Shown: in pieces, positions 20,745 through 50,854 of the stretch
Numbering within the stretch: position 1 is the stretch's first letter
How the letters are laid out: every line of letters begins with the position of its first letter
From: Flavobacteriaceae bacterium
Lineage (GTDB): Bacteria; Bacteroidota; Bacteroidia; Flavobacteriales; Flavobacteriaceae
Direction: 5' to 3'
Assembly: GCA_024635765.1 (NCBI GenBank)
Contig: JAGXIE010000112.1
Span: forward strand, 1-60,242
Length of the DNA stretch: 60,242 nucleotides
The notes under the pieces: model-generated
What the model saw: only the letters and a program-made list of their open reading frames with translations
What the model was told of the DNA's origin: nothing
The model's database searches: none
Program-made: the position numbers and the translations under genes

Positions 20745-21074
20745 CGATTCTCAAAAACTGACCCTGATTTTTATGAATATCCAAAAAATTTCACAGAGTA
20801 TTGCAAATATAGCAAATAATTAATCTTGATTTTTTTAATATTAATCTTGATTGCTAATAATAAAAAATTATCACAAATATCTGAAAAACAACTACTCAAT
20901 CGTATTTTAAGTAATATTTTTTCTTGATTTATCCATTGTTTATTTTATTTGAGTTGATGTTGCACCTATTTTTGAAATGTTATTAAATCGTTAACAAGGC
21001 CAAAGGTCTTTCACAAACCTTTGTAGAATTAATTTTTAACAATTTAACTAAATGAGTAAAACACTCCTACCATC

Positions 21075-24095: not shown

Positions 24096-24102
24096 AAAAG
24101 AA

Positions 24103-25596: not shown

Positions 25597-25608
25597 AAAA
25601 ATACAGTT

Positions 25609-26997: not shown

Positions 26998-27018
26998 CAA
27001 ATTTAAAAATATAATTCA

Positions 27019-28404: not shown

Positions 28405-28412
28405 GCAGATAA

Positions 28413-30599
<2,187 letters not shown>

Positions 30600-30656
30600 C
30601 ACCTTGTTAGCAGGGCGCTAACACTAAATTTATATTAATTAAATAATCTTCTTATT

Positions 30657-31916
30657 ATGAAAAAAATTACATTTTTACTTTTTTGTTTCTTGACGATATC
30701 GTTCGCTCAAGCGCAATTGACGTCCGTGGCCATAGTTGGTGACGGCGTTGGTGGATGGCCAGGCGAAGCTGGAAACCCGGGTCCAACAGATATTAATCAA
30801 ATGACTTCAACCGATGGAGTTAATTGGAGCATTGAAAATTTAACCGTCACGGCAGGTGCTGCTAAATTTCGCGGTAACAATTCTTGGGATTTACCTTTTA
30901 ATTGGGGCGGCTCATCTTTTCCTTCTGGAACTGGTACAGTCGATGGAGGTGGAATGCCTACAACTGCTGGAACATTTAACGTAACATTTAACAGCAATAC
31001 ATTCGCTTATAATTTTGTGTTAGTTACTGGTGGTGGTCTGGCGTCTGTTGCCATAGTTGGTGATGGCGCTGGAGGCTGGCCAGGTGATGCTGGAAATCCT
31101 GGTCCCGTGGATGTAAACCAAATGGGTACTGTTGATGGTGTCAATTGGACAATTTCTAATCTTGCGCTTACTGTAGGGTCGGTAAAATTCCGTGGTAATA
31201 ATTCATGGGATTTGCCATATAATTGGGGCGGTACAAATTTTCCATCGGGTACGGCTGTAGTTGATGGTGGAGGGATAGGAACTACTTCAGGAAATTATAA
31301 CGTAAGTTTTAATAGCGATACCTTTGTATATACTTTTGAATTGGTAGGTAGTGGTGCTAGCTCTATTGCCATTGTTGGTGATGGGGCAGGAGGTTGGCCC
31401 GGTGAAGCTGGGAACCCTGGCCCTGTGGACGTACATCAAATGACATCCACAGACGGAATAAATTGGACAATAAATAATCTTACTTTGACGGATGGTTCTG
31501 TAAAATTTAGAGGTAACAATTCATGGGATTTACCATATAATTGGGGTGGTTCTACTTTTCCATCAGGAACAGCTGTGATTGATGGAGGAGGAATTACTTC
31601 TGTTGCTGGAGAATACAATGTTACGTTTAATAGCTCTACTCGAGTCTATAACTTTGATGACGTATTAGGAATTGACGATAATGATTTTTCAACTTTTAAC
31701 ATTTATCCGAATCCAACGACCGACATTTTGAATATTAAATCTGATAATGAAATTTCTAACATAACGTTATTTGATTTAACTGGGAAAAAGGTATTTGACA
31801 CAAAAAATGTGGTTAACAATCAGGTTTATATAGGTAATCTATTACCTGGAATATATTTGATGAACATTCAGGATAGCAATGAAAATGGGGTCGTTAAAAA
31901 AGTGATTTTGAAATAA
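30657..31916 (+). CDS. Secreted protein with three ~106-aa tandem CBM-like repeats and T9SS sorting domain
   Basis: Signal peptide MKKITFLLFCFLTISFAQAQ; three copies of SVAIVGDGxGGWPGEAGNPGPxDxNQM...; C-terminal STFNIYPNPTTDILNIKSDNEISNITLFDLTGKKVFD...LLPGIYLMNI. Confidence 0.92.
   Translation: MKKITFLLFCFLTISFAQAQLTSVAIVGDGVGGWPGEAGNPGPTDINQMTSTDGVNWSIENLTVTAGAAKFRGNNSWDLPFNWGGSSFPSGTGTVDGGGMPTTAGTFNVTFNSNTFAYNFVLVTGGGLASVAIVGDGAGGWPGDAGNPGPVDVNQMGTVDGVNWTISNLALTVGSVKFRGNNSWDLPYNWGGTNFPSGTAVVDGGGIGTTSGNYNVSFNSDTFVYTFELVGSGASSIAIVGDGAGGWPGEAGNPGPVDVHQMTSTDGINWTINNLTLTDGSVKFRGNNSWDLPYNWGGSTFPSGTAVIDGGGITSVAGEYNVTFNSSTRVYNFDDVLGIDDNDFSTFNIYPNPTTDILNIKSDNEISNITLFDLTGKKVFDTKNVVNNQVYIGNLLPGIYLMNIQDSNENGVVKKVILK
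30720..31664 (+). repeat. Three in-frame tandem repeats (period 318-321 bp)
   Basis: Repeat units start at 30720, 31041 and 31359. Confidence 0.9.
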
Positions 31917-32731: not shown

Positions 32732-33589
32732 ATGCAAAACACCCTAAACCAAATCATTACAGAGTACAAGACCGAAATTAAACCCTACGTAGAATCAGAC
32801 CTGTCCGACCTCAACAATTTAATTTCGGGTATCAACATTTCACAAGAGTATTTACATAGATTGCGTGATATTATTAAAGAAAAAGTATTCTCAACTCCTG
32901 AAGCTGAAATATTTTTCTTCAAAGTTCAAAAACCACTCATATATGGACATTTTAAATATTTTGTGAAGCTCCATAGATATGTATTAGAAAAACCTCAAGG
33001 CTCCATAAAAAAGCAGCGCATTTACATTGATGCCCTAATTGAAAAATTACAATGCAATAATTTAAAATACATTGATTTTGTGCGATACTATCGGCAATGT
33101 GATTCTCGACTCGACAAATATTATTTTGTTAGAGGTAAAGAAAATCTAAATCTCATTTCAGATACCTCCCATTATTACACCGACCCAGATTTTTCCACAA
33201 GCCACGACAATATGGTCGCACAAATCATTGCATTTGATATGCTTATTTATCACTACAAACAAGAGTTGAAACGTCTCCATAAATTACAAAACAATATAGA
33301 TTCAGATAATAACATTTCAATTCCTTTCAATGACCTTTCATGGACAGCTTCCAAAACTGATTTGGTTGAAATAATTTATGCATTACAAGCCTCTGGAGCG
33401 ATTCGAAATGGTGAAGCTGAAATTAAGAAGATATCCATAATTTTCGAGAAACTCTTCAACTTGGAATTAGGGAATGTCTATCGCACCTATTTAGAAATTA
33501 AAGAACGTAAAAAGGACAGAACAAGTTTTTTGACCCAGCTCAAAATAGCTTTGGAACGTAAGATGGATGACGATGACGAAAAGTATTAA
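32732..33589 (+). CDS. rteC: RteC-family protein
   Basis: 285 aa; FFFKVQKPLIYGHFKYFVKLHRYVLEKP and C-terminal DLVEIIYALQASGAIRNGEAEIKKISIIFEKLFNLELGNVYRTYLEIKERKKDRTSFLTQLKIALERKM. Confidence 0.88.
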   Translation: MQNTLNQIITEYKTEIKPYVESDLSDLNNLISGINISQEYLHRLRDIIKEKVFSTPEAEIFFFKVQKPLIYGHFKYFVKLHRYVLEKPQGSIKKQRIYIDALIEKLQCNNLKYIDFVRYYRQCDSRLDKYYFVRGKENLNLISDTSHYYTDPDFSTSHDNMVAQIIAFDMLIYHYKQELKRLHKLQNNIDSDNNISIPFNDLSWTASKTDLVEIIYALQASGAIRNGEAEIKKISIIFEKLFNLELGNVYRTYLEIKERKKDRTSFLTQLKIALERKMDDDDEKY

Positions 33590-33773: not shown

Positions 33774-34049
33774 ATGGCAACACAAGTGCTTACCACAGAC
33801 GACCTTTATGAATTCAAAACGCAACTTTTTGAAGAGCTCAAAAAATTAATGGACAACAAGCCACAATCAGGTAAAAAAAAGTATCTCAAATCTTCAGAGG
33901 TAATGGAAATGTTGCAAGTGAGTCCAGGTACACTTCAAAATTTACGGATTAATGGCACCTTGCCATATTCCAAAATTGGTGGGATTATTTTCTACGATGC
34001 GGAAGAAATCAATCTCATCATGAAAGAAAATCGTATTGATAACCGATAA
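33774..34049 (+). CDS. Excisionase/HTH-17-type DNA-binding protein
   Basis: KKYLKSSEVMEMLQVSPGTLQNLRINGTLPYSKIGGIIFYDAEEINLIM. Confidence 0.88.
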   Translation: MATQVLTTDDLYEFKTQLFEELKKLMDNKPQSGKKKYLKSSEVMEMLQVSPGTLQNLRINGTLPYSKIGGIIFYDAEEINLIMKENRIDNR

Positions 34050-34107: not shown

Positions 34108-34776
34108 ATGCCAGAAGTGAACTACATCACTCATCTCAATAATTTCTTTCTGAAATTATCGAAGGATACAAGATTAAATACAACACACGTCAGTATGTAT
34201 ATGGCATTGTTTAATTTTTGGAATCAAGCACGGTTTTCATCAGAGTTTTTTATTAATAGAAATGAGGTAATGACGCTTTCCAGAATAGGTTCAAAAGGTA
34301 CTTATCATAAATGCATCAAGGATTTAAGCGATTGGAAATACATAATTTATATGCCTTCTAAAAACCCTAACATCGGTAGCAAAATAAAGATGTACAATTT
34401 TAGTACAAGTAGCGAACAAGCAACGAACCAACAGCGAACCGAAATCGGTACAAGTGGTGAACAAGTATTGGGTCCTTATATAAACAATACCAAACAGAAA
34501 AAACAATCAAACGTTTTTAAACCGCAAAATAAAAAAGAGGTCAGTATTTTTTTTGAAGAAAACAAATGGCCAGCTGCGCAGTCCGAAAAGTTTTTCAGCC
34601 ACTACGAATCGGTAGGTTGGAAAAAAGGAAAATCCAAAATAGAAAATTGGAGAGCTGCTGCAGAAGGGTGGATGATTCAGTTTCGGGAAAACGAAGAAAA
34701 CAACGTAAGCGCACAAGTACAGAATAAGGACAACCTGCATACCAATAAAAACAAAAATTATAATCAACCATTGTGA
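34108..34776 (+). CDS. Mobile-element-associated replication/regulatory-type protein
   Basis: MPEVNYITHLNNFFLKLSKDTRLNTTHVSMYMALFNFWNQARF; winged-helix-like N-terminus; followed directly by an AAA ATPase. Confidence 0.6.
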   Translation: MPEVNYITHLNNFFLKLSKDTRLNTTHVSMYMALFNFWNQARFSSEFFINRNEVMTLSRIGSKGTYHKCIKDLSDWKYIIYMPSKNPNIGSKIKMYNFSTSSEQATNQQRTEIGTSGEQVLGPYINNTKQKKQSNVFKPQNKKEVSIFFEENKWPAAQSEKFFSHYESVGWKKGKSKIENWRAAAEGWMIQFRENEENNVSAQVQNKDNLHTNKNKNYNQPL

Positions 34777-35459
34777 TGAAACCAATACAAACCACATTCA
34801 ATCCAAACCAACCTCAAATTATCATTGAAGGTGCAGTGCAATATGAATTGGGAACGTTCGATGGCACAACAATTAACTATGATTTTAAAAAAATTCTAAT
34901 ATATCTCAATGCAAAAGGTAAATTGTTATTCGGCAAAAACTTTAAGATTTATGAAGAAGATGAGGTCATTTTGTACAAGTTGTGTATTTACTTTATTCGC
35001 GATTTCGATGCATGTGAAAAATTGGAAATTGACCTCAATAAGGGCATTCTATTATCGGGCCCTGTAGGTTGTGGAAAAACAAGCCTCATGAAATTACTAC
35101 GTCATATCGTGCCACATCAAAAACCTTATGAAGTGATTCCTGCAAGAAATATCGCATTTTCGTTTAACAATCTTGGCTATAAGACCATAGAAGAATATGG
35201 CAATAGTAGTTTTTATTGTTTTGACGATTTAGGTGTCGAAACAACCGGAAGACATTTTGGTAAAGATTGCAACGTTATGGGCGAAATTCTTTTATCTCGT
35301 TATGACCTATTTCTGAAAAACAAAATAAATACGCATGCAACAACCAATCTAAATGCTCAAGAATTAGAGGAAAGATATGGTAATCGTGTACGATCAAGAA
35401 TGCGACAATTATTCAATTTAATTGCTTTTGATGAAAAAAGTGTTGATAAACGAACTTAA
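34773..35459 (+). CDS. DnaC-like AAA ATPase
   Basis: Walker A GPVGCGKTSLMK, Walker B SFYCFDDLGVE, ATTNLNAQELEERYGNRVRSRM sensor/arginine finger region. Confidence 0.82.
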   Translation: MMKPIQTTFNPNQPQIIIEGAVQYELGTFDGTTINYDFKKILIYLNAKGKLLFGKNFKIYEEDEVILYKLCIYFIRDFDACEKLEIDLNKGILLSGPVGCGKTSLMKLLRHIVPHQKPYEVIPARNIAFSFNNLGYKTIEEYGNSSFYCFDDLGVETTGRHFGKDCNVMGEILLSRYDLFLKNKINTHATTNLNAQELEERYGNRVRSRMRQLFNLIAFDEKSVDKRT

Positions 35460-35790: not shown

Positions 35791-37059
35791 ATGGCAAAAA
35801 ACAATATCATAGAAGTCATTGTGTTCGGTCAAGAGATAGGAAAATTGGGGTACGATGTTGATAAACGCGCCTCTTTTTTCCAATACAATCCAGAGTTTTT
35901 AGAGTCAAATCAGTACACGAATTTATTTCCTTATATATTTAAACGTATAAAACCACTTCAAGTATTTAAACAGTTTGAAGGAGAAACATTCAGAGGCTTA
36001 CCACCAATGATAGCAGATTCATTGCCAGACATGTTCGGTAATATTATTTTCAAGGAATGGTTCGAAGCGAAAAATAAAGAATTTAAAAAAATCACACCCC
36101 TTGAGCAGCTTACCTATGTGTCTAATCGGGGTATGGGTGCAATAGAATACCATCCTATAGCCAAAATTCCAAAATCAACAACCATCAATATCGACGAAAT
36201 TGTAGAGATATTGAATAAAGTGTTGGACCTAAAAAACGCAACGGCTGAAGATGTATTAAATGATGCAGCCTTATTGAATATTTTTAAGATAGGAACCTCT
36301 GCAGGTGGTGCGCGGCCGAAAATATTAATTTCAGAGCATAAAGAAACAGGTCGCATAATTCCTGGCGATGTGGAATACAGTGATGCTTATAATCATTTTC
36401 TGGTCAAATTATGTATGAATGAGGAATGGGGCTACAACAAAGAAAAAATTGAATACGCCTACTATCAGTTGGCCCAAGAAGTGGGAATCGAAATGATGCC
36501 GTCAAAACTAATAGAGAACAAGCACTTTGCAACCTTACGTTATGACCGGCAAAATGGAGAAAAACAACACGTCCTAACGGCATCTGGCCTAACAGGATGG
36601 GATTTTAAAAAACCAGAAAATGCCACTTATGAAAATGTATTCAAATTAGCATTAGACCTCAAAGTGCCACATAGAGATATTCAAGAGCTTTTTAAAAGGA
36701 TGATATTTAATTTGGTGTTTGCCAACATAGACGACCATCTGAAAAACCATAGTTTCATATTTAATAAAGAAGCAGACACTTGGAGTTTAGCACCAGCCTA
36801 TGACTTGACCTATCCGTTAAATATTAATTTCAACTATAGCAATATAGCAAGGGCATTGTCCATTAATAATAAAAGGAATAATATCAATTTGACAGATGTA
36901 TTAACAATAGCTGAAGCGTATGCAATAAAAAATCCAAAAGGAATTATTAAAGATGTACAAAAGGCTACACAACTATGGGGTATTTTAACAAAACAATTAG
37001 ACATTCCAGTAAAAGTAAGTGAAGGTATTAAAAAAGAATTTTTAATACTTATAGAATGA
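35791..37059 (+). CDS. hipA: HipA-family serine/threonine kinase toxin
   Basis: LTAYVSNRGMGAIEY-like, TSAGGARPKILI, MIFNLVFANIDDHLKNHSFIF, WSLAPAYDLTYP. Confidence 0.92.
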   Translation: MAKNNIIEVIVFGQEIGKLGYDVDKRASFFQYNPEFLESNQYTNLFPYIFKRIKPLQVFKQFEGETFRGLPPMIADSLPDMFGNIIFKEWFEAKNKEFKKITPLEQLTYVSNRGMGAIEYHPIAKIPKSTTINIDEIVEILNKVLDLKNATAEDVLNDAALLNIFKIGTSAGGARPKILISEHKETGRIIPGDVEYSDAYNHFLVKLCMNEEWGYNKEKIEYAYYQLAQEVGIEMMPSKLIENKHFATLRYDRQNGEKQHVLTASGLTGWDFKKPENATYENVFKLALDLKVPHRDIQELFKRMIFNLVFANIDDHLKNHSFIFNKEADTWSLAPAYDLTYPLNINFNYSNIARALSINNKRNNINLTDVLTIAEAYAIKNPKGIIKDVQKATQLWGILTKQLDIPVKVSEGIKKEFLILIE

Positions 37060-37081
37060 ACTACTCTATCTATAAAAAATA

Positions 37082-37157
37082 CAGTATAACAATTATGTAA
37101 ATAAAAATTTGCACATTAAAATATTTTATGTATATTTGCAGTATAGCAATTATGTAA
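37082..37157 (+). promoter_or_regulatory. Candidate RM-operon promoter flanked by two 19-bp repeats
   Basis: TTTG (37108-37111)-N19-TATATTTG (37131-37138); CAGTATAACAATTATGTAA at 37082-37100 and CAGTATAGCAATTATGTAA at 37139-37157. Confidence 0.7.
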
Positions 37158-37164
37158 TTTATTT

Positions 37165-37764
37165 ATGCAAGTTAAAAATACAACATTAAAAAAAATTCTT
37201 CATGGTGAAGGCATATCTTCCGGATATTCCTTTAGAAGTAAAATTGAGAACAATCCTGACGGTCAATATAAAGTGATTCAGCTAAAGGATTTCATCAATG
37301 ACTATACTGCTATTAGTCAAGACTGCTATAAAGTGCCTGCGGAGGACATAAAAGATAAGTATGTCCTAAAAACGGGTAATATTCTCTTTATTTCTAAAGG
37401 CCAAAATAATAATGCAGTAGTATATTCGGAGAAGGATTTAAATGGGCCTTACATTGCGTCTTCTTCCTTATATGTAATCGAAGTAAATCCAAAAAAAGCA
37501 AACCCAGATTTCATTGCCTGGTACATCAACCAGTTGCCAGTGCAAAACTACATTAAACAGAACTTAACAGGAACCTACACGCCTACTGTAAATCGTAAGG
37601 TGGTAGAAAATATCCCAATACAACTTCCTGCACTCGAAGAGCAAGCTTATATGGCTTCACTAGGCAAATTAGCCATAATGGAAAAAAACTTGCATGCCCA
37701 AATCTCGGAGTTAAGGGAACTTCTAATTAACAATCAATTATTAAATCATATTAACAATAGATAA
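37165..37764 (+). CDS. Half-length type I restriction S-subunit-like protein (single TRD)
   Basis: 199 aa; FIAWYINQLPVQNYIKQNLTGTYTPTVNRKVVENIPIQLPALEEQ plus C-terminal coiled coil as in HsdS. Confidence 0.8.
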   Translation: MQVKNTTLKKILHGEGISSGYSFRSKIENNPDGQYKVIQLKDFINDYTAISQDCYKVPAEDIKDKYVLKTGNILFISKGQNNNAVVYSEKDLNGPYIASSSLYVIEVNPKKANPDFIAWYINQLPVQNYIKQNLTGTYTPTVNRKVVENIPIQLPALEEQAYMASLGKLAIMEKNLHAQISELRELLINNQLLNHINNR

Positions 37765-37774
37765 TTCAATTAAA

Positions 37775-39295
37775 ATGTCAGATAAAAAACCATCTCAAGA
37801 ACAAATCAACGCAGCCTTATGGAATGCTTGCGACACCTTTAGAGGAGCATTCGACTCGTCTGAATACAAAAATTACATTTTGGTGTTTATGTTTATTAAA
37901 TATTTAAGTGATGTATGGGAAGACCATTATCAGGAATACAAAATGCAGTATGGCGACAATGAAGAGCTCATCCAGCGGAAGTTAGGCAGGGAACGTTTCA
38001 TCTTGCCTAAAAACTGCACGTTCAAGTATATTTATGAAAACAGAGACCATCAAGATATTGGTGGCATCATCGATAAGGTATTAGGACAGATAGAAGAACA
38101 AAATATAGAAAAGCTAGATGGCGTGTTTCGTAACATCAGTTTCAATTCTGACAAATTAGGTCAAACCAGAGACCGTAACCGTCGTTTGAAGAATCTGATT
38201 AACGACTTTGCCCAACCCGAGTTGGATTTTCGACCATCACTTTGGGATGGCAAGCAAGATATACTTGGAGATGCATACATGTATCTATTAGAAAAATTTG
38301 CATCTGGAGCTGGTAAAAAAGGCGGTGAATTTTTTACACCTAAAGAAGTCTCTGGTCTCTTGGCTAAACTAGTCAACCCAAAAGAAGGTGACCGTATTTT
38401 TGACCCTACCTGTGGTTCTGCCTCACTATTGATTAAAGTAGCAGAAGAAGTAAAAGACAGTCAAGGCAATCCAACTAATAATTTTGCACTATATGGCCAA
38501 GAATCTAATGGTGATACCTGGGCATTAAGTAAAATGAACTGCTTTTTACATAGTATGGACTCTGCTCAAATTGAATGGTGCGATACAATCAACAACCCAA
38601 AACTAATTGAGAATGATAGTTTAATGAAGTTTGATGTGGTAGTGGCAAATCCACCCTTCAGTTTAGATAAATGGGGTCATGAGAATGCCGAAACCGACCG
38701 TTACAAACGATTTTTAAGAGGAGTGCCACCAAAATCCAAAGGTGATTATGCTTTTATATTACACATGATAGAAACTGCATTGCCTTCGGGTAAAGTTGGT
38801 GTCATTGTGCCACATGGTGTACTGTTTAGAGGTAGTGCCGAAGGCAGAATACGTCAAAATCTAATTGAAGAAAACTTATTGGAGGCAGTTATTGGCTTGC
38901 CATCCAACCTCTTTTTTGGGACAGGTATTCCTGCAGCGATTCTGATTTTTAACAAAGCGCGTGCGAGTTCGAGCGAGAAAAGAGTGTTGTTTATTGATGC
39001 CAGCAAAGACTATCAAGACGGTAAAAAGCAAAACATTTTGCGCAAAAAGGACATTTCAAAAATAGTGGAGACTTATAAAGGCTTCACAGAAACAGAAAAA
39101 TACAGCCATTTGGCAAGCCTTGAAGAAATTGCTGAAAACGACTTCAACCTCAACATCCCACGTTATGTGGACACATTTGAAGAAGAAGAACCAGTAGATA
39201 TTGCTGCAACACAACAGGAAATTGAAAGACTGGAATCCGAGTTGGTGGAGGTGCGTGCGCAAATGGACAATTATTTAAAAGAGCTAGGACTATAA
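37775..39295 (+). CDS. hsdM: Type I restriction-modification methyltransferase (M) subunit
   Basis: GEFFTPKEVSGLLAKLVNP, IFDPTCGSASLL, FDVVVANPPFSL. Confidence 0.96.
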   Translation: MSDKKPSQEQINAALWNACDTFRGAFDSSEYKNYILVFMFIKYLSDVWEDHYQEYKMQYGDNEELIQRKLGRERFILPKNCTFKYIYENRDHQDIGGIIDKVLGQIEEQNIEKLDGVFRNISFNSDKLGQTRDRNRRLKNLINDFAQPELDFRPSLWDGKQDILGDAYMYLLEKFASGAGKKGGEFFTPKEVSGLLAKLVNPKEGDRIFDPTCGSASLLIKVAEEVKDSQGNPTNNFALYGQESNGDTWALSKMNCFLHSMDSAQIEWCDTINNPKLIENDSLMKFDVVVANPPFSLDKWGHENAETDRYKRFLRGVPPKSKGDYAFILHMIETALPSGKVGVIVPHGVLFRGSAEGRIRQNLIEENLLEAVIGLPSNLFFGTGIPAAILIFNKARASSSEKRVLFIDASKDYQDGKKQNILRKKDISKIVETYKGFTETEKYSHLASLEEIAENDFNLNIPRYVDTFEEEEPVDIAATQQEIERLESELVEVRAQMDNYLKELGL

Positions 39296-40605
39296 TGGAG
39301 CACAACACCGACACAACACCGACAAAAGTCCACCAAGATGCCAAATTAGGGGTAATTCCTGATGGATGGTCAACACCAAAAATTAACGAGGTGTTTCAGT
39401 TTATTAATACAACCTCATTTTCACGTGACCAGCTCAATTATGATGAAGAGAGTGACTTATATTATATCCATTACGGTGATATTCACGCAACATACAAAAA
39501 ACCATTGCTAGACTTTGAAATTGAAGCTAAAGTGCCAAAGTTAAATAGCGATGTGATGTTGCCAGCTAGCATTCAATATTTAAAAGATGGCGATGTGATT
39601 ATTGCAGATGCATCAGAAGATTATGCAGGTGTAGGTGAAGCAATAGAGATTAAAAACTTAAATGGTAAAGCAGCAATAAGTGGCTTGCACACCTTTGCGT
39701 TAAGAGCTATTGATAACGAAACGGTTGCAGGCTTTAGAACCTATATTTTTAAAAACCCTAATGTAAAAAAGGCACTTAAAACAATTGCTACAGGTAGTAA
39801 AGTATATGGTATTTCAAAGGGAAATATACAGAAGTTTAAAATTGTATTGCCTACAATACCAGAGCAACAAGAAATAGCCCAAATCCTAGCGACTTGGGAT
39901 GTGGCAACTATTAAACAAGAGGCATTAATAAAAGAGAAGCAACAACAAAAAAAATCACTAATGCAACAGTTGCTTTCTGGCAAAAAACGGTTTACTGGGT
40001 TTGATAAAAAGATTTCATTTGTCAAAATCAAACAAATAGGAAAAGTTCTTTCCGGTGGAACTCCAAGCACATCAAATTCTGAATATTGGAATGGAGGTGT
40101 TCCATGGTGTACACCTACAGAAATAACTGGACTGAATGGCTTGATGAATATAATTCAAACCGAACGAACAATTAGTGAAAGTGGTCTAAAGAATTCTTCT
40201 GCTAATTTGCTGCCTAGAAACTCACTAATTGTATGTACTAGAGCAACTATAGGAGCTTGTGCTATAAATACGATTCCGATGGCGACTAATCAAGGCTTTA
40301 AAAACATTATTCCAGAGATAAACAAAATTGATATCATTTATCTTTATTATACAGTTCAGACAATTAAACCTAAAATGATTGCTTTATCATCTGGCAGCAC
40401 ATTTTTAGAGTTATCAAAAACAGACTTTGAAAGTATTAAAATACCTCTACCATCTCTTAAAGAACAACAAAAAGTAGCAGAAGTTTTAATGGCTGCAGAT
40501 AATGAGATAACATCCTTACAACAACAATTGCAAAAGCTAAAAACACAAAAACAAGGTTTAATGCAGCAGTTATTAACAGGAAAAATAAGAGTAAAATTAA
40601 ATTAG
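39295..40605 (+). CDS. hsdS: Type I restriction specificity (S) subunit
   Basis: Two TRD-like halves, each ending in IPEQQEIAQIL / LKEQQKVAEVL coiled-coil spacers. Confidence 0.95.
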   Translation: MEHNTDTTPTKVHQDAKLGVIPDGWSTPKINEVFQFINTTSFSRDQLNYDEESDLYYIHYGDIHATYKKPLLDFEIEAKVPKLNSDVMLPASIQYLKDGDVIIADASEDYAGVGEAIEIKNLNGKAAISGLHTFALRAIDNETVAGFRTYIFKNPNVKKALKTIATGSKVYGISKGNIQKFKIVLPTIPEQQEIAQILATWDVATIKQEALIKEKQQQKKSLMQQLLSGKKRFTGFDKKISFVKIKQIGKVLSGGTPSTSNSEYWNGGVPWCTPTEITGLNGLMNIIQTERTISESGLKNSSANLLPRNSLIVCTRATIGACAINTIPMATNQGFKNIIPEINKIDIIYLYYTVQTIKPKMIALSSGSTFLELSKTDFESIKIPLPSLKEQQKVAEVLMAADNEITSLQQQLQKLKTQKQGLMQQLLTGKIRVKLN

Positions 40606-40606
40606 T

Positions 40607-41122
40607 ATGGAAGAAATTAAAGAAATAGAACAATCAAGGTACGTCCTTAATAGGTTTGACCATTACATAGAAGGTGCTAACAGTAAAGGAAATTTTTTAT
40701 TGGCGTATAGTGCATTTTTATTTGGGTTTATAGTAACCAGTTTTAATGATATAGTGGCATTAGACAATTCAGACTCTAAAAATTGGATAATAGTTCTACT
40801 CGCCGTAATTCTGGTGATTGGTTTGGTAAGTATAGGCTTTACAATTGCAGCCGTATTTCCGTTTTTAAAAACTAACAATTCAAGTAGTAAAAACTACCAT
40901 TCATTAGTATTTTTTAATTCCATAGCAGATATGGAGGAAGAGAACTTTTTAAAACAATATAAGCAACAAAAAGATAAAAAAGCCTGTAAGGATATGGCAA
41001 AACAGATTTATGCTATTTCTAAAGGACTTAAATCAAAATATTTCAAAATTAGTTGGGCAATTAGGTTGGTTTTTGTTCAGTTATTTCTTCTTTTATTAAT
41101 TATTTTAATCAAAATAGTATGA
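40607..41122 (+). CDS. PycTM-like (DUF5706-like) membrane effector
   Basis: RFDHYIEGANSKGNFLLAYSAFLFGFIVTSF, second TM IIVLLAVILVIGLVSIGFTIAAVF, C-terminal TM; 4-bp overlap (ATGA) with the downstream cyclase. Confidence 0.82.
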   Translation: MEEIKEIEQSRYVLNRFDHYIEGANSKGNFLLAYSAFLFGFIVTSFNDIVALDNSDSKNWIIVLLAVILVIGLVSIGFTIAAVFPFLKTNNSSSKNYHSLVFFNSIADMEEENFLKQYKQQKDKKACKDMAKQIYAISKGLKSKYFKISWAIRLVFVQLFLLLLIILIKIV

Positions 41123-42456
41123 GTTTATTTAAAAATTATAAATCAGGTATTGAGAGTGTTTTGAGCAGGTCTGGTCAAACACTTCAAAAAGGGTTGAATT
41201 CACCTTATGTTTTGCTTAACGAAAGTAAAAGAACTTTTTCTTCCGTTCCAGCTACTATTGAGCCAAATTCCAAAACTATTTTAGAATTCGATTCTAATCA
41301 ATTAAAAAAATATTTTGGTCCAAATAAATATTCATTTGATAAAGTTACTATTGGGAATCATCCGGACTTCGAAGAGTTAGGAGAAAATCAAATGCTCAAG
41401 CATCATTGCGTGTCGATGTTTATTGATATTAAAGGTTCAACAAGATTAGCTCTAAAGTATTCTTTAGAAGAAGTTCGCTTGATAAAAGATACTTTATTAA
41501 CACTATGTATAAACGTGGTAAGCCATTTTGGTGGACATGTTCATAGATTGCAAGGAGATGCAGCGTTTGTTCAGTTTGTTAGAAAGAATTCAAACCCGAA
41601 CGACAGTATTATTAATGCTTTAAATGCGGCTAGCGTATTGTGCCAAGTAGTTTCTGAAGACTTAACCTCTGCGTTTGTTAGTCATGGTCTAGACCCAATA
41701 AAGATTAGAGTTGGGATTGATTATGGGAATGATGAAGAAGTAATGTGGTCACACTATGGGATTGCTAACTGTAATGAATTAACAACAACAAGTTTGCACA
41801 CAGATTTAGCGGCAAAGCTTCAACATAAAGCATCAGTAAATTCAATTCGAATAGGTAAAAATCTCATTGATGCGATAGAAATGAAAGAAGAGTATTTAAG
41901 TATTCCAAAAATTATAAAAAATGGAGAATATTTAGAGGACAGGTACATTATTCAATCTTCGGAATTTAATTATAGACAATTTAATTTTGATTGGAAAAAA
42001 TACTTAAATAGTTTTTCATTTTACAAACTAAACGGAAATGGTAAGTTGGAGATTTTTGACAATGCTTTCTCATTGAAAACAAGCGTATACACATCAGCAC
42101 AGGAAGGGTTAGCGTCTCAATATCATGAAAACAATTATGCAATCCTTAAAGGTAAGTACATTAAATATGAGCTTATGTTCGGTAACGTTCCATACTATAA
42201 AAAACCATATGAAAAAATTACATGGGAAGCATATAATTATGGTAGTGAAGCTATAGCAGAAAAGGATGAGCACCATGATTTTAAGAAAGAATTCATTAAT
42301 AAGACACATTGTATCGCGCATGCAGGATATCACGGGAATCACTATTTAAAATGTACCATTCATAGAGAGCATTCAGAAAATGTGGTACTGAAATTTCCAA
42401 TTTATGTTGATAGCGAATGGGATACTGATATCGCTTTAAAAAGTATGTTGAACTAA
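41119..42456 (+). CDS. Class III nucleotidyl cyclase (PycC-like) with C-terminal AGS-C-like sensor domain
   Basis: CVSMFIDIKGSTRLALKYSL and HRLQGDAAFVQFV metal-binding aspartates, IKIRVGIDYG; C-terminal YELMFGNVPYYKKPYEKITWEAYNYGSEA...HYLKCTIHRE. Confidence 0.83.
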   Translation: MSLFKNYKSGIESVLSRSGQTLQKGLNSPYVLLNESKRTFSSVPATIEPNSKTILEFDSNQLKKYFGPNKYSFDKVTIGNHPDFEELGENQMLKHHCVSMFIDIKGSTRLALKYSLEEVRLIKDTLLTLCINVVSHFGGHVHRLQGDAAFVQFVRKNSNPNDSIINALNAASVLCQVVSEDLTSAFVSHGLDPIKIRVGIDYGNDEEVMWSHYGIANCNELTTTSLHTDLAAKLQHKASVNSIRIGKNLIDAIEMKEEYLSIPKIIKNGEYLEDRYIIQSSEFNYRQFNFDWKKYLNSFSFYKLNGNGKLEIFDNAFSLKTSVYTSAQEGLASQYHENNYAILKGKYIKYELMFGNVPYYKKPYEKITWEAYNYGSEAIAEKDEHHDFKKEFINKTHCIAHAGYHGNHYLKCTIHREHSENVVLKFPIYVDSEWDTDIALKSMLN

Positions 42457-42468
42457 ATTATTAAAACA

Positions 42469-42702
42469 ATGCCAAGAAAAGAAAGACACGTAGTTTCTAA
42501 CCCAAATGGTGGTTGGGATTCCAAAAGAGAAAAAGCCGAAAGAGCTTCAAAACATTTTGAAACAAAAAAAGAAGCGATGGACTGGAGCAGACAAAAAAGC
42601 AAATCTGAAGGCTCTGAATTGATTCCTCATAAAAAAGATGGTAAAATTCAAAATCCGGATAGTCACGGTAACGACCCTAATCCGCCTAACGATAAGAACT
42701 AA
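42469..42702 (+). CDS. DUF2188-like small protein
   Basis: RHVVSNPNGGWDSKREKAERASKHFETKKEAMDWSRQKSKSEGSELIPHKKDGKIQ. Confidence 0.82.
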   Translation: MPRKERHVVSNPNGGWDSKREKAERASKHFETKKEAMDWSRQKSKSEGSELIPHKKDGKIQNPDSHGNDPNPPNDKN

Positions 42703-43049
42703 TGAATATTCAGTTAGAACATCTGTATGGTATCTGGAGACATGAGCACAATGGCGTGATTACAGATTTTAGCATCAGGGTTTATGATGAACAGCATCAT
42801 ACAGGTCTTTCAATGTTTACAATTTTTAGATGGACAGATGATGGTTCAGAAATTATTTATGAATGGCATGGTGTTCCTGAAATAATAAATTATCCAGATG
42901 AGATTTCTGATATTATTATACATCACCTAATATCTACTGAAGTTAATTTAACGTATCAAAATTTAAAAATCTGGCATTTCACCAATAAACTAATGATATT
43001 GGAATTTGGAGATGGTTCGAGAGTAGAATTTGCAAAATTGGGAGGATAA
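42702..43049 (+). CDS. Hypothetical 115-aa protein within RM operon
   Basis: Start codon overlaps the end of the DUF2188 gene; no family recognised. Confidence 0.7.
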   Translation: MNIQLEHLYGIWRHEHNGVITDFSIRVYDEQHHTGLSMFTIFRWTDDGSEIIYEWHGVPEIINYPDEISDIIIHHLISTEVNLTYQNLKIWHFTNKLMILEFGDGSRVEFAKLGG

Positions 43050-43125
43050 TTTAAATATGTGCTTAATCTAGTTCCCCAAAAAAGTATAGAATTTCCGAAG
43101 GGAATAAATAATAAGAAAATAAAGA

Positions 43126-46100
43126 ATGGCAGCAAATTATAACGAGTTACAAGATTCTCAAGCACCAGCAATATCGTTGCTCCAAAAACTAAATTGGAAA
43201 TACATCACACCTGACCAAGCCTTTAAGGCAAGGGGTGAGCTATTGTCAAATGTAATTCTTAATGATATTCTGGCAGAACAATTACATGTCATTAACCATT
43301 TTGAATATAAAGGGGATAAGTATAAATTTTCTACGGGCAGTGTTCAGGGAGCTATCAACGCACTTAAAAGTGTTCCTATTGAAGGAGTAGTAAGAACGAA
43401 TGAGCATGTATATGATTTATTGACCTTGGGCAAAAGTTTTAATGAAACAGTAAAGGGAGACCGTAAAGCCTACACAATGAAATTCATTGATTGGCAAAAT
43501 CCTCAAAACAATGTATTTCATGTAACTGACGAATTTGTTGTAGAAGGATTAAAAGGAAAACGTCGTCCAGACATTGTCTTATTCGTAAATGGAATCCCAT
43601 TTGTAGTTATCGAAAACAAACGAAGAGACAAAAATCTATCTTTAGAAGAAGCAATTTCTCAAAATATTGGTAACCAAAAAGAAGATGGTATTCCAAAATT
43701 ATTCTATTATGCTCAAATTTTAATGGCCATACAGCCTAATGCGGCTAAATATGCAGTCACAGGTACAGAAGCAAAGTTTTGGGCCGTTTGGAAAGAGAAT
43801 ATAGAGGCGGAAGTTCAGAAACTACTTAAACGTCCGGTCAATAATACTCAAGCGGAAAATAGATTAGTAACTGAACAAGACAAAGCATTGTATTCATTAT
43901 GTGAGCCTTATCGATTACTCGATATTATTTATAAATATGTAGTGTTCGATGGTCCAGATAAAAAAATATGCCGTTACCAACAATATTTTGCAGTCCAGGA
44001 GACCATCGAAAGGGTAAAACAAAGAGACAAAGAAGGGAATCGCAAAGGCGGAGTTATTTGGCACACCACTGGTAGTGGTAAATCACTAACAATGGTGATG
44101 TTATCAAAAGCTTTGGCACTCGACGCCTCAATTGAAAACCCGAGAGTGATTATCGTAACAGACCGAATTAGTTTGGACAAACAAATCTTTAAAACCTTTG
44201 TAAACTGTGGGAAAAGTGTAAAAAAGGCTAGGAGTGGTTCAAACCTCATGGAGTTGTTGCAAGATAAGGGAAGTGAAATCATCACCACCATCATCGATAA
44301 ATTCAATATTGCATCTAGCAGAGTTACATTTAAAGATGAATCCCAAAATATTTTTGTTCTTGTGGACGAAAGTCACCGTAGTCAGTACGGTAGTGCGCAT
44401 GCCAATATGAAACGCATAGTACCAAATGCGTCTTACATTGGTTTTACTGGTACACCTTTAATGAAATCGGAAAAAAACACCTCTAAAAAATTTGGTGGAT
44501 TTATTCATAAATACACGATTGACCAAGCGGTTAAAGATGGTGCAGTATTGCCATTATTGTATGAAGGAAGGTCAGCCAAATTAACAATCAATAAAAATCA
44601 AATTGATAAAGAATTTGAAAGACTATCGGAAAATTTAAGCGAAGAAGCACAAAAAGACCTAAAAAAGAAATTCTCTTCAATAAGTAGAATTTTCGAATCA
44701 GAACATGTGGTAAACGAAATTGCTTACGACATTTCAAAACATTACACTCAAAACTGGCAAGGATATGGCTTTAAAGCGCAGTTAGCAGTGCCTAAAATTG
44801 ATACGGCTATTAAGTATCAGAAATATTTTGAGAATCAAACCAATCCAGACTTGAGAGTAAATACAAAAGTTGTATTTACGCCACCAGATAGCCGCCAAGA
44901 CAATGATGATGTTTGGTCAGAGAGTAGTAACGAATCTAGAATCTACTGGAATCAACTCATGACTAAACATGGCAATCAAGAAGACTATGAAAATTGGGTC
45001 ATCGAGAAATTTAATGATTCTTCAACGGAAGTGGAACTTATAATAGTAGTTCGAAAACTATTGACAGGGTTCGATGCACCTAGAAATACGGTATTGTATC
45101 TGGCAAGACCTTTGGTAGCGCATAATTTACTACAAGCAATTGCAAGGGTCAATAGATTATTCAAAGGAAAAGAGCATGGTCATATTATTGATTATGTAGG
45201 CATTTTAGGGAAATTAGACGAAGCCTTAACAGAATATAGTGCGCTCGAAGATTTTGACGAAGAAGATTTAACAAATGCATTAGTGAATATCACAGATGAA
45301 GTGCGCAAAGTGCCTATTAGACATGCTGAAGTGGCTGACATATTTAATGAAGTCTATAATAAAAATGATATAGAAGCCTTGGAGCGTCATTTAGCTGAAA
45401 AAGATTTACGTGATGAGTTTTATGAGAAACTGTCCAACTTTGCTAAATCCTTACAAACAGCTTTGGCTTCAGATGAGTTCTATCAAGAATTCACAATGCA
45501 ACAAATAGGCTATTATAAAATGGAATTAAAGAAGTATCAAAGTTTGAGAATCTCTGTCCAATTTCGTTACGCCGAAGTGGTGTCTTATAAAGAATATGAA
45601 CCAAGAATTAAAAAATTGTTAGACACCTATATTGATGCCGATAAAGTTGAGGTATTAACATCTGACCTTAATATTTTTGATAAGCAACAAGTAGAAGAAG
45701 CTTTAGAAACCTATGGAAAGTCATCAGCTTCTAAAGCAGATTTTATTGCACATCAAATGAAAAGAGTGATTTCCGAAAACATGGAAAAAGATGAAGCATT
45801 TTATAAAAAGTTTTCTGATTTAATCGAAAAGACAATTCAAGAATTTAATGAGGGAAGAATTGACGAAGCAAAATATTTAGAGACTATACTGAAAGCAAGA
45901 ACAGACTTGCATCAGGGCTATCAAGAAGGTATTCCAGAGTTGCTTTTACATAAACCAGAAGCAAGAGCATTTTATGGAGCTTTAAATATGGTGTTAAGTA
46001 ACAAACACGGTGAACAAATTGTGAAACAAATAACGGATGATTTAGCAAACACTTCGGTGGCGATTTCCAAAATAGTGGAAGGTTTGACCATTAGAGACTG

Positions 46101-46251
46101 GAAGAAAAATTTAGATATTCAAAGGCAAATGGAGAATGATATAGAAGACTATCTAATCAGTCATAGGAAAGACTTGGGTGTAGAAATAACATTTGATGAA
46201 ATTGATAATATACTAGAAAAGTGTCTAAAAGTAGCTAAAAACAATTTTTAA
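43126..46251 (+). CDS. hsdR: Type I restriction endonuclease (R) subunit
   Basis: RRPDIVLFVNGIPFVVIENKR nuclease, GVIWHTTGSGKSLTM Walker A, DESHRSQYG, GFTGTPL. Confidence 0.96.
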   Translation: MAANYNELQDSQAPAISLLQKLNWKYITPDQAFKARGELLSNVILNDILAEQLHVINHFEYKGDKYKFSTGSVQGAINALKSVPIEGVVRTNEHVYDLLTLGKSFNETVKGDRKAYTMKFIDWQNPQNNVFHVTDEFVVEGLKGKRRPDIVLFVNGIPFVVIENKRRDKNLSLEEAISQNIGNQKEDGIPKLFYYAQILMAIQPNAAKYAVTGTEAKFWAVWKENIEAEVQKLLKRPVNNTQAENRLVTEQDKALYSLCEPYRLLDIIYKYVVFDGPDKKICRYQQYFAVQETIERVKQRDKEGNRKGGVIWHTTGSGKSLTMVMLSKALALDASIENPRVIIVTDRISLDKQIFKTFVNCGKSVKKARSGSNLMELLQDKGSEIITTIIDKFNIASSRVTFKDESQNIFVLVDESHRSQYGSAHANMKRIVPNASYIGFTGTPLMKSEKNTSKKFGGFIHKYTIDQAVKDGAVLPLLYEGRSAKLTINKNQIDKEFERLSENLSEEAQKDLKKKFSSISRIFESEHVVNEIAYDISKHYTQNWQGYGFKAQLAVPKIDTAIKYQKYFENQTNPDLRVNTKVVFTPPDSRQDNDDVWSESSNESRIYWNQLMTKHGNQEDYENWVIEKFNDSSTEVELIIVVRKLLTGFDAPRNTVLYLARPLVAHNLLQAIARVNRLFKGKEHGHIIDYVGILGKLDEALTEYSALEDFDEEDLTNALVNITDEVRKVPIRHAEVADIFNEVYNKNDIEALERHLAEKDLRDEFYEKLSNFAKSLQTALASDEFYQEFTMQQIGYYKMELKKYQSLRISVQFRYAEVVSYKEYEPRIKKLLDTYIDADKVEVLTSDLNIFDKQQVEEALETYGKSSASKADFIAHQMKRVISENMEKDEAFYKKFSDLIEKTIQEFNEGRIDEAKYLETILKARTDLHQGYQEGIPELLLHKPEARAFYGALNMVLSNKHGEQIVKQITDDLANTSVAISKIVEGLTIRDWKKNLDIQRQMENDIEDYLISHRKDLGVEITFDEIDNILEKCLKVAKNNF

Positions 46252-46952
46252 TGCATTCAATAAACTACGGCACAAAGGAGTTGTTTTTCGATTTAAAACA
46301 ATCGAAAAGAAAATCCCTGTCGATTGAAGTATATCCAGATAATTCAATAAGAGTATTGGCCCCTCTAGCATCTAGCATGGAGGAAATTAAAAAAGTGATA
46401 TTAAAAAAATCGCGATGGATAATTCGGCAACAACATTATTTCGAACAATTCTTACCTAAAACACCGGAGCGGGAATACGTTTCTGGAGAAACACATTATT
46501 ACTTGGGTAGAGGATATTTGTTAAAAATAAGACCTGGTCAAAAAAATGTTATAAAGTTGAAAGGGGGATGTTTTCATGTGGAGTATTGCGGTTATGATGC
46601 ACAAAAGATTACAAAAAATCTAATGGCAAAATGGTATTATGAACATTCTGAAAAAAAGTTTTTCACGATAGCAAACGAGATGTTTTTAAAATTCAAAGAA
46701 TTTGAGCTAGATAAACCTAATATCGATATCAAAAGAATGGCAAAACGTTGGGGGAGTTGTCAGAAAAATGGCAAAATAATAATCAACCCAGAAATTATAA
46801 AAGCCCCAACTAAATGTATCGAATATGTCATAACACACGAAATGTGCCATCTAGTTCAATTCAGTCATGATAAAAAATTCTACACTCTATTATCTGAAAA
46901 AATGCCCAATTGGGAAAAATGGAAAAACAGATTAGAACAAACCTTGTCATAA
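46251..46952 (+). CDS. YgjP-like (DUF45) zinc metallopeptidase
   Basis: MAKRWGSCQKNGKIIINPEIIKAPTKCIEYVITHEMCHLVQFSHDKKFYTLL. Confidence 0.92.
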   Translation: MHSINYGTKELFFDLKQSKRKSLSIEVYPDNSIRVLAPLASSMEEIKKVILKKSRWIIRQQHYFEQFLPKTPEREYVSGETHYYLGRGYLLKIRPGQKNVIKLKGGCFHVEYCGYDAQKITKNLMAKWYYEHSEKKFFTIANEMFLKFKEFELDKPNIDIKRMAKRWGSCQKNGKIIINPEIIKAPTKCIEYVITHEMCHLVQFSHDKKFYTLLSEKMPNWEKWKNRLEQTLS

Positions 46953-48653: not shown

Positions 48654-48682
48654 AATCGCTTCCGAAAAAATATTGAAACGAA

Positions 48683-48707
48683 AAAGCCCAGGAAATGTCT
48701 GGGCTTT
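48683..48707 (-). terminator. Terminator for the minus-strand cassette
   Basis: AAAGCCCAG-gaaatgt-CTGGGCTTT, T-run on the minus strand. Confidence 0.7.
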
Positions 48708-48900
48708 AATTGCTATCAATCTTACGTTTGAGTAGTTTTTTCGCTAAAAACTTGAAAAGCATCGAGGCAACAAAACTGGCAAACGCTCCAGTAAAGGCCA
48801 TAATAACCGTAACAATAATGTCATCGGGTCGAATATTGGGGACAATTGCAAAAAGAGTACCACCAGCGATACTTATTTTGTCATCAAAATTAAAATGCAT
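48706..48900 (-). CDS. Small membrane protein (holin-like size and topology)
   Basis: 64 aa, hydrophobic segment PDDIIVTVIMAFTGAFASFVASMLFKFLAKKLLKRK; compact operon context. Confidence 0.65.
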   Translation of the reverse strand: MHFNFDDKISIAGGTLFAIVPNIRPDDIIVTVIMAFTGAFASFVASMLFKFLAKKLLKRKIDSN

Positions 48901-48905
48901 AGTGA

Positions 48906-49145
48906 TTAGCCCTCCTCGTCACTGTCTGTTTTTTCAGCATCATCACCCTCAACTACAGCTTGACTGACAGCTGTGGCCACAGTGCCAGCAACAGTCAAAT
49001 AAGTCGCTACGGTCACAACAATAGCTGGAAATGAAATCGGTGCAGCAATCACAGCGCCTCCCACAGCTGCCAAGGCAATACCAATATTTCGTAAAGTCTT
49101 AAAGAATTTAGGGGTTGGTTGTTTATAACGTTCTACAATGTTCAT
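48906..49145 (-). CDS. Small hydrophobic protein
   Basis: 79 aa, TLRNIGIALAAVGGAVIAAPISFPAIVVTVATYLTVAGTVATAVSQAVVEGDD. Confidence 0.65.
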   Translation of the reverse strand: MNIVERYKQPTPKFFKTLRNIGIALAAVGGAVIAAPISFPAIVVTVATYLTVAGTVATAVSQAVVEGDDAEKTDSDEEG

Positions 49146-49545
49146 AGTTTACAGATTTAATGGTTAATAAAATGGTTTCTTTTCGGTCCTGGGCTTGGTG
49201 TACCACGGACAATAATTTTTGCAATGCAGGTCTTGCTTGCGCTCCCTTGCCGATACCTGTCAGATTAAGTACTGGAGCAATACAGCCCTCCAATTCCTTC
49301 AGCGCATCATTCGCGGGATGGATTAGAATCAAGCTTCTTTTTTCTACACCCTTTAAAAGCAAATGATGGTTGTGCTTTGGAGAAAACCTCGGAACAATCT
49401 CATAAACGCCTTCAGGAATACATGAAATGGAACGTCTGTTTTCTTTCCAAGGCAACTCAATTGTATGACACAAAAAACTGTGAGAGCAAAAGAGAGTACC
49501 ATTGGTACCCTCTTTAAAATAAGCTCTCTCAAGCGTGAACTCCAT
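49123..49545 (-). CDS. DUF5675-family protein
   Basis: EGTNGTLFCSHSFLCHTIELPWKENRRSISCIPEGVYEIVPRFSPKHNHHLLLKGVEKRSLILIHPANDALKELEGCIAPV. Confidence 0.85.
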   Translation of the reverse strand: MEFTLERAYFKEGTNGTLFCSHSFLCHTIELPWKENRRSISCIPEGVYEIVPRFSPKHNHHLLLKGVEKRSLILIHPANDALKELEGCIAPVLNLTGIGKGAQARPALQKLLSVVHQAQDRKETILLTIKSVNYEHCRTL

Positions 49546-49547
49546 GA

Positions 49548-50303
49548 CTATGGAGTATCAATGCCAACAACAGCCAAAGCATTGTAAGCGCCGTTTTTAA
49601 GCGGGTACATTTGGCCATTCACCTCTTGGAAAAATTCCACGCCAATCACCTGCACAATTGGAAGTGTAGAGTTGGCAGTCAAGTTCGCTGTCAAAGTTGT
49701 TGCAGCGATGTTGGAACTGTCCCAAGCAAGAATCGCAGTAGCTTCACTTGATACAACATGGGTTTCCGTTTGAAAATCCAATTCCGCACCACCTACAGAA
49801 AGTCTAAAGTGGGTAGTTCCACCAGGAGCAGCAATACTGTTCAAAGCCACAAAAGCAGCAAAATCAGTGGCAGCAGTTCCAGCCACACGGTCAATTGTTG
49901 AGGTATAGTCCACAAACAATAAAGAAGCAAGCTTCCCATTGATATTGAACTCAAAACCTCCCAATAGTGATAAATCACCATCTTGGACAGTCCTGAAACC
50001 ACGCTCATTGATTACGTCAGCTTTGACCACAGCGACCAATTTTTGAGTCAATCGACTCGTCACTCGTTTGTCCGATGCATTCTGCATCAAGTTTCGAAGC
50101 GCTACTCTGATGAGTTTTCCACCTTTACCAGCTGTCCCAAATTCAGACCCATTTTCACGAGTTCTCTGAAACGCAGGGTCATTCGCAATCCGACTGGCAT
50201 CAATCCCACCTTTTTCGCGTGCTAAATGACCGTCAGACGTTTTGTAAAAGGAAATACCACCGATAGTTCCTTTCAATTTAATAATACCTGTTTGTCTTGC
50301 CAT
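49548..50303 (-). CDS. Conserved Bacteroidota hypothetical (MARQTGIIKLKGTIGG family)
   Basis: 251 aa, MARQTGIIKLKGTIGGISFYKTSDGHLAREKGGIDASRIANDPAFQRTRENGSEFGTAGKGGKLIRVALRNLMQNASD; first gene of the cassette. Confidence 0.75.
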   Translation of the reverse strand: MARQTGIIKLKGTIGGISFYKTSDGHLAREKGGIDASRIANDPAFQRTRENGSEFGTAGKGGKLIRVALRNLMQNASDKRVTSRLTQKLVAVVKADVINERGFRTVQDGDLSLLGGFEFNINGKLASLLFVDYTSTIDRVAGTAATDFAAFVALNSIAAPGGTTHFRLSVGGAELDFQTETHVVSSEATAILAWDSSNIAATTLTANLTANSTLPIVQVIGVEFFQEVNGQMYPLKNGAYNALAVVGIDTP

Positions 50304-50462: not shown

Positions 50463-50666
50463 ATGAAGATTGTAAGAGTTTGCATATTCCCAAAGGACAT
50501 CCATTGCATCACTGGAAGAAGTGAACGCTATGGCAGGAAGCTATTACAAGATATTAGAAAACACTTTGATAAAGAACCACATCAATTTATTACTGTAGAA
50601 GAATTCGCTGAATACAGTGGCATAAAAGAAGAAATAATTATTCAATATTTAGAACAAATTTCATAG
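50463..50666 (+). CDS. Small conserved HTH-like protein
   Basis: 67 aa, FPKDIHCITGRSERYGRKLLQDIRKHFDKEPHQFITVEEFAEYSGIKEEIIIQYL. Confidence 0.75.
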   Translation: MKIVRVCIFPKDIHCITGRSERYGRKLLQDIRKHFDKEPHQFITVEEFAEYSGIKEEIIIQYLEQIS

Positions 50667-50831: not shown

Positions 50832-50854
50832 GGTTTGAATCCAGTCGAGGTCAC
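50832..50854 (+). other. Candidate attR core (23-bp direct repeat, copy 2; orphan tRNA-Arg 3' end)
   Basis: GGTTTGAATCCAGTCGAGGTCAC with no tRNA 5' portion upstream. Confidence 0.78.

What the first reader, a model, noticed from the sequence alone, without database searches (positions are those of the whole stretch)
48706..50303. Uncharacterised four-gene cassette at the right island border
Minus strand: MARQTGIIKLKGTIGG-family protein, DUF5675 protein, then two small hydrophobic proteins, closely packed with a shared terminator. DUF5675 plus holin-sized membrane proteins suggests a phage-derived lysis, secretion or structural module. The 251-aa first gene has no recognisable function. Together with the small HTH at 50463 it could be a mobile cassette or a new system.
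Basis: partly seen in the sequence, partly recalled or inferred. Interest (0 to 1): 0.62.

Follow-up and report, generated by a model that had tools for sequence, protein, structure and literature searches.

The report
End module of a Bacteroidota island
The four genes, plus the small regulator beside them, are the conserved end piece of a widespread but apparently undescribed family of DNA islands that insert into tRNA genes of Bacteroidota bacteria and carry defence, sugar-use or metal-resistance genes, and they may help the island leave its host cell.

Summary
The four ORFs are real, tightly packed and end at a hairpin terminator, but they are not a stand-alone cassette. With the divergent 67-aa gene they form the far end of a 33.6-kb island in a tRNA-Arg gene (17.2-50.85 kb): 23-bp direct repeat of the tRNA 3' end, tyrosine integrase at the other end, empty site in two relatives. 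Eight further complete islands (Flavobacteriaceae; tRNA-Arg, -Pro or -Ser; 29-47 kb) share the plan: tRNA, integrase, cargo, excisionase-like/replication/DnaC-like block, and this module just inside the distal att site. One island is 98-99.9% identical over 28.6 kb between Lacinutrix and Tenacibaculum. A circular 25-kb Marivirga 'plasmid' looks like the excised form. The module's genes are under purifying selection. No relaxase (PF03432) and no recognised phage structural gene was found. The 251-aa protein is a new family without a significant fold match. DUF5675 resembles the LD-transpeptidase-fold toxin Tlde1a and keeps an invariant His and Cys; the two small membrane proteins are holin-sized. 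Best reading: lysis/exit module of a satellite-like island with an unknown carrier. Anatomy and mobility are shown; function is inferred.

The parts
49548..50303 (-). MARQ: 251-aa protein of a new family; basic N-terminal half, acidic beta-sandwich C-terminal half
   Evidence: no family hit; AF2 pLDDT 90.7; no significant Foldseek match; charge split
49123..49545 (-). DUF5675 protein, LD-transpeptidase-like fold, invariant His76 and Cys88, no hydrophobic signal segment
48906..49145 (-). TM1: 79-aa membrane protein, holin-sized
   Evidence: hydropathy; 25 of 28 TM1 matches in 297 genomes lie within 2 kb of MARQ
48706..48900 (-). TM2: 64-aa membrane protein with basic C-terminus, holin-sized
48683..48707 (-). 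terminator-like hairpin of the module
50463..50666 (+). divergent 67-aa HTH-like protein, part of the module
   Evidence: in 79 of 81 related loci and 9 of 9 complete islands
50832..50854 (+). distal att site: 23-bp copy of the tRNA-Arg 3' end
   Evidence: empty site in relatives
17151..17225 (+). intact tRNA-Arg; its last 23 bp (17203-17225) are the proximal att site
17444..18700 (+). tyrosine integrase of the island
   Evidence: Pfam Phage_integrase 2e-14, SAM-like 2.6e-20
19113..31916 (.). cargo slot 1: DUF6377 regulator and starch-use locus (SusC, SusD, SusE/F, alpha-amylase, GH97)
32732..33589 (+). RteC-family protein (in 6 of 9 islands)
   Evidence: Pfam 2.1e-71
33774..34049 (+). HTH_17 protein, excisionase-like (9 of 9 islands)
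   Evidence: Pfam 7.1e-9; PHROG excisionase 5e-8
34108..34776 (+). 222-aa core protein, candidate replication initiator (9 of 9 islands)
   Evidence: core position; weak PHROGs of unknown function; the role is inferred
34776..35459 (+). DnaC-like helicase loader (9 of 9 islands)
   Evidence: PHROG_50 1.1e-20
35791..46952 (+). cargo slot 2: HipA, type I RM (HsdS fragment, HsdM, HsdS, HsdR) with PycTM/PycC inside, YgjP-like metallopeptidase

Best explanation
The cassette (HTH, MARQ, DUF5675, TM1, TM2) is the conserved att-end module of a family of tRNA-targeted integrative islands of Bacteroidota. The island integrates by its own tyrosine integrase, can exist as a circle, and probably replicates with its 222-aa protein and DnaC-like loader. 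After excision the module most likely serves exit from the cell: HTH controls the divergent operon; TM1 and TM2 act as holins that let the signal-less, LD-transpeptidase-fold DUF5675 enzyme reach the cell wall; MARQ is a cytoplasmic structural or adaptor protein that self-assembles or binds DNA or a helper's capsid. The island has no recognised transfer genes, so the carrier is most likely a helper phage. Shown: anatomy, island ends, empty site, mobility, conservation, selection. Inferred: lysis, the satellite lifestyle, and the roles of MARQ and HTH.
For: Nine complete islands with the same plan and tRNA-end repeats; empty site; 28.6 kb at 98.0-99.9% identity between two genera; circular Marivirga record with integrase, replication block and module; 14 of 17 observable MARQ loci have the 222-aa core gene on the opposite strand within 44 kb; purifying selection; DUF5675 model matches Tlde1a with prob 0.95 and has invariant His/Cys; DUF5675 is annotated transpeptidase in crAss-like phages and is the unassigned gene of a microvirus; TM1/TM2 small and hydrophobic, DUF5675 without a signal segment; no PF03432 relaxase in the islands. 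Precedent: integrase-only islands moved by a jumbo phage (PMC12595487).
Against: No helper and no packaging gene or signal identified. Foldseek E-values for DUF5675 are weak (0.02-0.05). HTH and MARQ occur without the lysis-like genes in several Chitinophagaceae-type loci. RteC, known from conjugative transposons, fits a conjugal link. Relaxase families other than PF03432 were not tested.
Confidence: 0.5

Rival explanations
1. The module is an abortive-infection system: MARQ and HTH sense a phage and release the DUF5675/holin pair so that the infected cell dies early.
For: The cargo next to it is rich in defence genes; the lysis-like set could kill the host.
Against: Unlike the cargo it is not swapped: it is in 9 of 9 islands at the same fixed place by the att site and stays when neighbouring cargo changes. 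No PADLOC match for MARQ.
Confidence: 0.18
2. The islands move by hitch-hiking on conjugation, and the module remodels the envelope or serves entry exclusion rather than lysis.
For: RteC in 6 of 9 islands; integrase-type islands are often mobilised in trans (general knowledge; PMC11389934).
Against: No PF03432 relaxase in the islands; oriT not searched.
Confidence: 0.17
3. MARQ is the subunit of a self-encoded DNA-carrying particle or filament, released by the DUF5675/TM1/TM2 lysis unit.
For: Cytoplasmic, strongly conserved, opposite charges in its two halves, less ordered N-terminal arm; adjacent lysis-like genes.
Against: No similarity to any capsid, coat or pilin in PDB or BFVD; no packaging ATPase recognised.
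Confidence: 0.09
4. It is a decayed prophage remnant.
For: DUF5675 occurs in many phages.
Against: Genes intact and under purifying selection, same order in dozens of loci, MARQ and TM1 absent from phage records.
Confidence: 0.04

Closest known systems
Integrase-only genomic islands moved by helpers: I23/I44/I55 of Pseudomonas fluorescens (PMC12595487)
   Same: Tyrosine integrase, direct repeats at an RNA gene, defence cargo, no recognised transfer genes, spread between hosts
   Different: Those sit at tmRNA; here tRNA-Arg/Pro/Ser. Here there is a fixed MARQ/DUF5675/TM1/TM2 end module and a DnaC-like replication block; no carrier is known
Tycheposons (tRNA-targeted elements of marine cyanobacteria; from general knowledge)
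   Same: tRNA target, tyrosine recombinase, variable cargo, no conjugation genes
   Different: Different phylum; no sequence comparison was made; the MARQ module is specific to the islands described here
Phage satellites with defence hotspots (P4-like, PICI, PLE)
   Same: Integrase, excisionase-like and replication genes, defence cargo, no full virion gene set
   Different: No helper or packaging genes identified; 29-47 kb is larger than classical satellites
Tlde1a, LD-transpeptidase-fold wall toxin (PMC9638812)
   Same: Predicted fold of DUF5675 and an invariant His and Cys
   Different: Tlde1a is a type VI secretion effector; the (S/T)HGC motif is not kept in DUF5675 and activity is untested

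Membership tests
tRNA-targeted integrative genomic island | intact tRNA at one end, direct repeat of its 3' end at the other | tested here: met
   window 23 bp; 9 of 9 islands 16-28 bp
tRNA-targeted integrative genomic island | tyrosine integrase next to the tRNA | tested here: met
   window 17444-18700 and all nine islands
tRNA-targeted integrative genomic island | empty site in relatives | tested here: met
   L140 and L141
tRNA-targeted integrative genomic island | excision as a circle | tested here: inconclusive
   circular Marivirga record with the expected gene order, but no integrated copy compared and its junction not matched to a tRNA
ICE or IME | relaxase and conjugation genes | tested here: not met
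   no PF03432 match in the islands of nine genomes; no conjugation gene among window island ORFs given to Pfam; other MOB families not tested
Prophage | capsid, portal, terminase or tail genes | tested here: not met
   none recognised among the window island ORFs searched with Pfam or module/core proteins searched with PHROGs
Phage satellite | transfer depends on a helper phage | not testable with these tools
   needs transfer assays
Phage satellite | integrase plus replication genes without a full virion gene set | tested here: met
Holin-endolysin lysis cassette | signal-less wall enzyme | tested here: inconclusive
   LD-transpeptidase-like model and invariant His/Cys, no hydrophobic segment; Foldseek E 0.02-0.05
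Holin-endolysin lysis cassette | small membrane protein(s) that form the lesion | tested here: inconclusive
   TM1 and TM2 are small and hydrophobic; no holin family match
Holin-endolysin lysis cassette | lysis on expression | not testable with these tools
   bench test needed
DUF5675 (PF18925) | score above the curated cut-off | tested here: met
   99.4 bits against 26.7
I55-type tmRNA islands | integration downstream of tmRNA | tested here: not met
   targets are tRNA-Arg, -Pro, -Ser

The most novel reading that the evidence does not exclude
MARQ is the building block of a previously unknown DNA-carrying particle or filament, and the module (MARQ, wall enzyme, two pore proteins) is a minimal self-encoded transfer machine that spreads 29-47 kb defence and metabolism islands through Bacteroidota without conjugation or a helper phage.
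Probability: 0.08. Interest if true: 0.92.

Novelty: new variant of a known kind. Interest (0 to 1): 0.64.

Why it matters
How integrase-only tRNA islands travel between cells is a long-standing open question. That is a concrete, testable candidate for the exit step. The module also marks where to look for mobile defence and metabolic cargo in this phylum.

Tried and rejected
(1) Cassette as a mobile unit of its own: the first comparison showed a 4.2-kb block with unrelated flanks, but its outer end is a tRNA 3' fragment and the whole island proved to be shared. (2) A closing DUF6943 gene as the defining partner: present in 48 of 81 loci but absent from the window. (3) Structured RNA or repeats in the 1.75-kb non-coding stretch left of the module: Rfam found only the tRNA; one imperfect 19-bp inverted repeat. 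(4) Fold match for MARQ: none significant in PDB or BFVD. (5) MARQ in viruses: none in phage records, one viral contig (L115) without the island core genes in the part read. (6) Promoters: sigma-70-type hits no more than chance; the Bacteroidota motif in the divergent spacer occurs in too few loci to tell. (7) Literature: DUF5675 in 2 papers, DUF6943 in none; a paper on a Riemerella 10-kb tRNA island names no such genes in its text.

Full report
WHAT IS THERE. The four minus-strand ORFs exist as described, spaced by 2 bp, a 23-bp overlap and 5 bp, with a terminator-like hairpin right after the last one. DUF5675 is certain. The 251-aa protein (here 'MARQ', from its first residues) has no match in Pfam, PHROGs or NCBIfam. 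A 67-aa HTH-like gene (50463-50666) is divergent from it.

A CONSERVED MODULE. ORF clustering of 81 loci (these 80 and one viral contig) gave MARQ 81, divergent HTH 79, TM1 66, DUF5675 65, TM2 64, and a convergent DUF6943 gene in 48. In an even draw of 297 genomes of the phylum, 27 carry MARQ, and 25 of 28 TM1 matches lie within 2 kb of a MARQ match, in several families. Pairwise dN/dS for MARQ, DUF5675, TM1 and TM2 is 0.045-0.23, so all four are kept by selection. The window's own genome holds four MARQ homologues and four DnaC-like copies, so several such elements may coexist.

THE ISLAND. The window's tRNA-Arg (17151-17225) ends in a 23-bp sequence that recurs at 50832-50854. A tyrosine integrase starts 219 bp after the tRNA, and the module lies just inside the distal copy; HTH ends 166 bp before it. 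Two relatives carry the same left neighbour gene and tRNA-Arg followed directly by sequence like that to the right of the window's distal repeat: the empty site.

THE FAMILY OF ISLANDS. Eight further complete islands were fetched by way of the integrase positions. All nine have an intact tRNA (Arg x4, Pro x4, Ser x1), the integrase, an excisionase-like HTH_17 protein, a 222-aa protein, a DnaC-like helicase loader, and at the far end TM1-MARQ-HTH (9/9) with DUF5675 and TM2 (8/9 each), then a 16-28 bp copy of the tRNA end. RteC is in 6/9. Lengths are 28.8-46.8 kb. Cargo varies. The window carries a starch-use locus and a HipA, type I RM and Pycsar set. In 84 proteins on the cargo side PADLOC matched 227 models, against 24 models for 84 proteins outside the islands; this counts models rather than systems, so it is only a rough sign of defence enrichment. 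In the independent 297-genome draw, 14 of 17 observable MARQ loci of at least 50% identity have the 222-aa gene on the opposite strand 1-44 kb away; two more loci lie at contig ends.

MOBILITY. Lacinutrix sp. C3R15 and Tenacibaculum soleae share 28.6 kb of island at 98.0-99.9% identity with unrelated chromosomal flanks; the main difference is a swapped cargo segment between the DnaC-like gene and the end block. The circular 25,320-bp record NZ_CP129969.1 of Marivirga carries the integrase, replication block and whole module, with HTH next to the integrase as expected for an excised circle. In that record MARQ, DUF5675 and the integrase are split by frameshifts, so it is decayed or holds sequencing errors, and its junction was not matched to a tRNA.

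HOW IT MIGHT WORK. AlphaFold gives MARQ a confident model (pLDDT 90.7): an N-terminal beta meander and helices, then a beta-sandwich. Foldseek finds nothing significant, only C2/Ig-like sandwich resemblance. In nearly all members the N-terminal half is basic (pI about 10) and the C-terminal half acidic (pI about 4.3). The best meaningful PDB match of the DUF5675 model is Tlde1a (prob 0.95, TM 0.44-0.49, E 0.02-0.05), and His76 and Cys88 are invariant. Tlde1a is an LD-transpeptidase-fold toxin that acts on peptidoglycan with His121, His129 and Cys131 (PMC9638812). In phages, DUF5675 is annotated as transpeptidase in crAss-like genomes, and in a 4.9-kb microvirus it is the gene without an assigned role, where lysis is a natural guess. 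DUF5675 has no hydrophobic segment, while TM1 and TM2 are small and hydrophobic, as in a holin-endolysin pair. With no PF03432 relaxase and no recognised structural phage gene, the most economical reading is a helper-dependent, satellite-like island whose end module serves exit. A precedent for that lifestyle is the Pseudomonas tmRNA island moved by a jumbo phage (PMC12595487). Lysis, helper and the role of MARQ are inference.

LIMITS. The functions of MARQ, HTH, TM1 and TM2 rest on context. HTH and MARQ also occur without the lysis-like genes in Chitinophagaceae-type loci, several of them next to an intact tRNA, and the DnaC-like gene was not found in the genomes of L113 and L081, so MARQ must have a role that makes sense without them. 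Only PF03432 was used for relaxases. ORF clustering used simple ATG ORFs, so counts are lower bounds. The papers searched are the open-access part of PubMed Central.

Noticed in passing
window 37165-46251: A Pycsar pair (PycTM 40607-41122, PycC 41119-42456) sits inside a type I RM locus between hsdS and hsdR, with an extra HsdS fragment at 37165-37764.
   Followed up: no
window 17049-17127: A second, odd tRNA-Arg-like copy with a palindrome in its 5' part lies just upstream of the intact tRNA-Arg; it may be a remnant of an earlier insertion.
   Followed up: no
window 50885-51035: The tRNA terminator hairpin and about 50 bp after it are duplicated just outside the distal att site.
   Followed up: no
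window 46953-48705: 1.75 kb without a convincing gene between the RM cargo and the module; non-coding stretches also follow DUF6943 in other islands.
   Followed up: partly
L051 13490-13557 (also L037, L038, L044, L053): A conserved inverted repeat (AACAAACTAAAA ... TTTTAGTTTGTGGGGA) marks the boundary between the end block and the variable cargo; a candidate site for cargo exchange.
   Followed up: no
L063, L043, L052, L079, L088 between TM2 and DUF6943: A second cargo slot, either nearly empty (16-90 bp) or holding 2-4 kb of genes mostly on the opposite strand, some of them defence-like by their N-terminal sequence.
   Followed up: partly
L059, L081, L085, L090, L113 around the MARQ gene: A variant with only HTH and MARQ, in four of these next to an intact tRNA whose 3' end faces HTH; a possible different element type.
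   Followed up: partly
L069, L076, L110 between DUF5675 and TM1: In some Flavobacterium-type copies an extra exported or lipoprotein-like gene of 146-224 aa sits inside the operon.
   Followed up: no
L143 (NZ_CP129969.1), whole record: Several module and core genes of the Marivirga circle are split by frameshifts: MARQ, DUF5675 and the integrase.
   Followed up: partly
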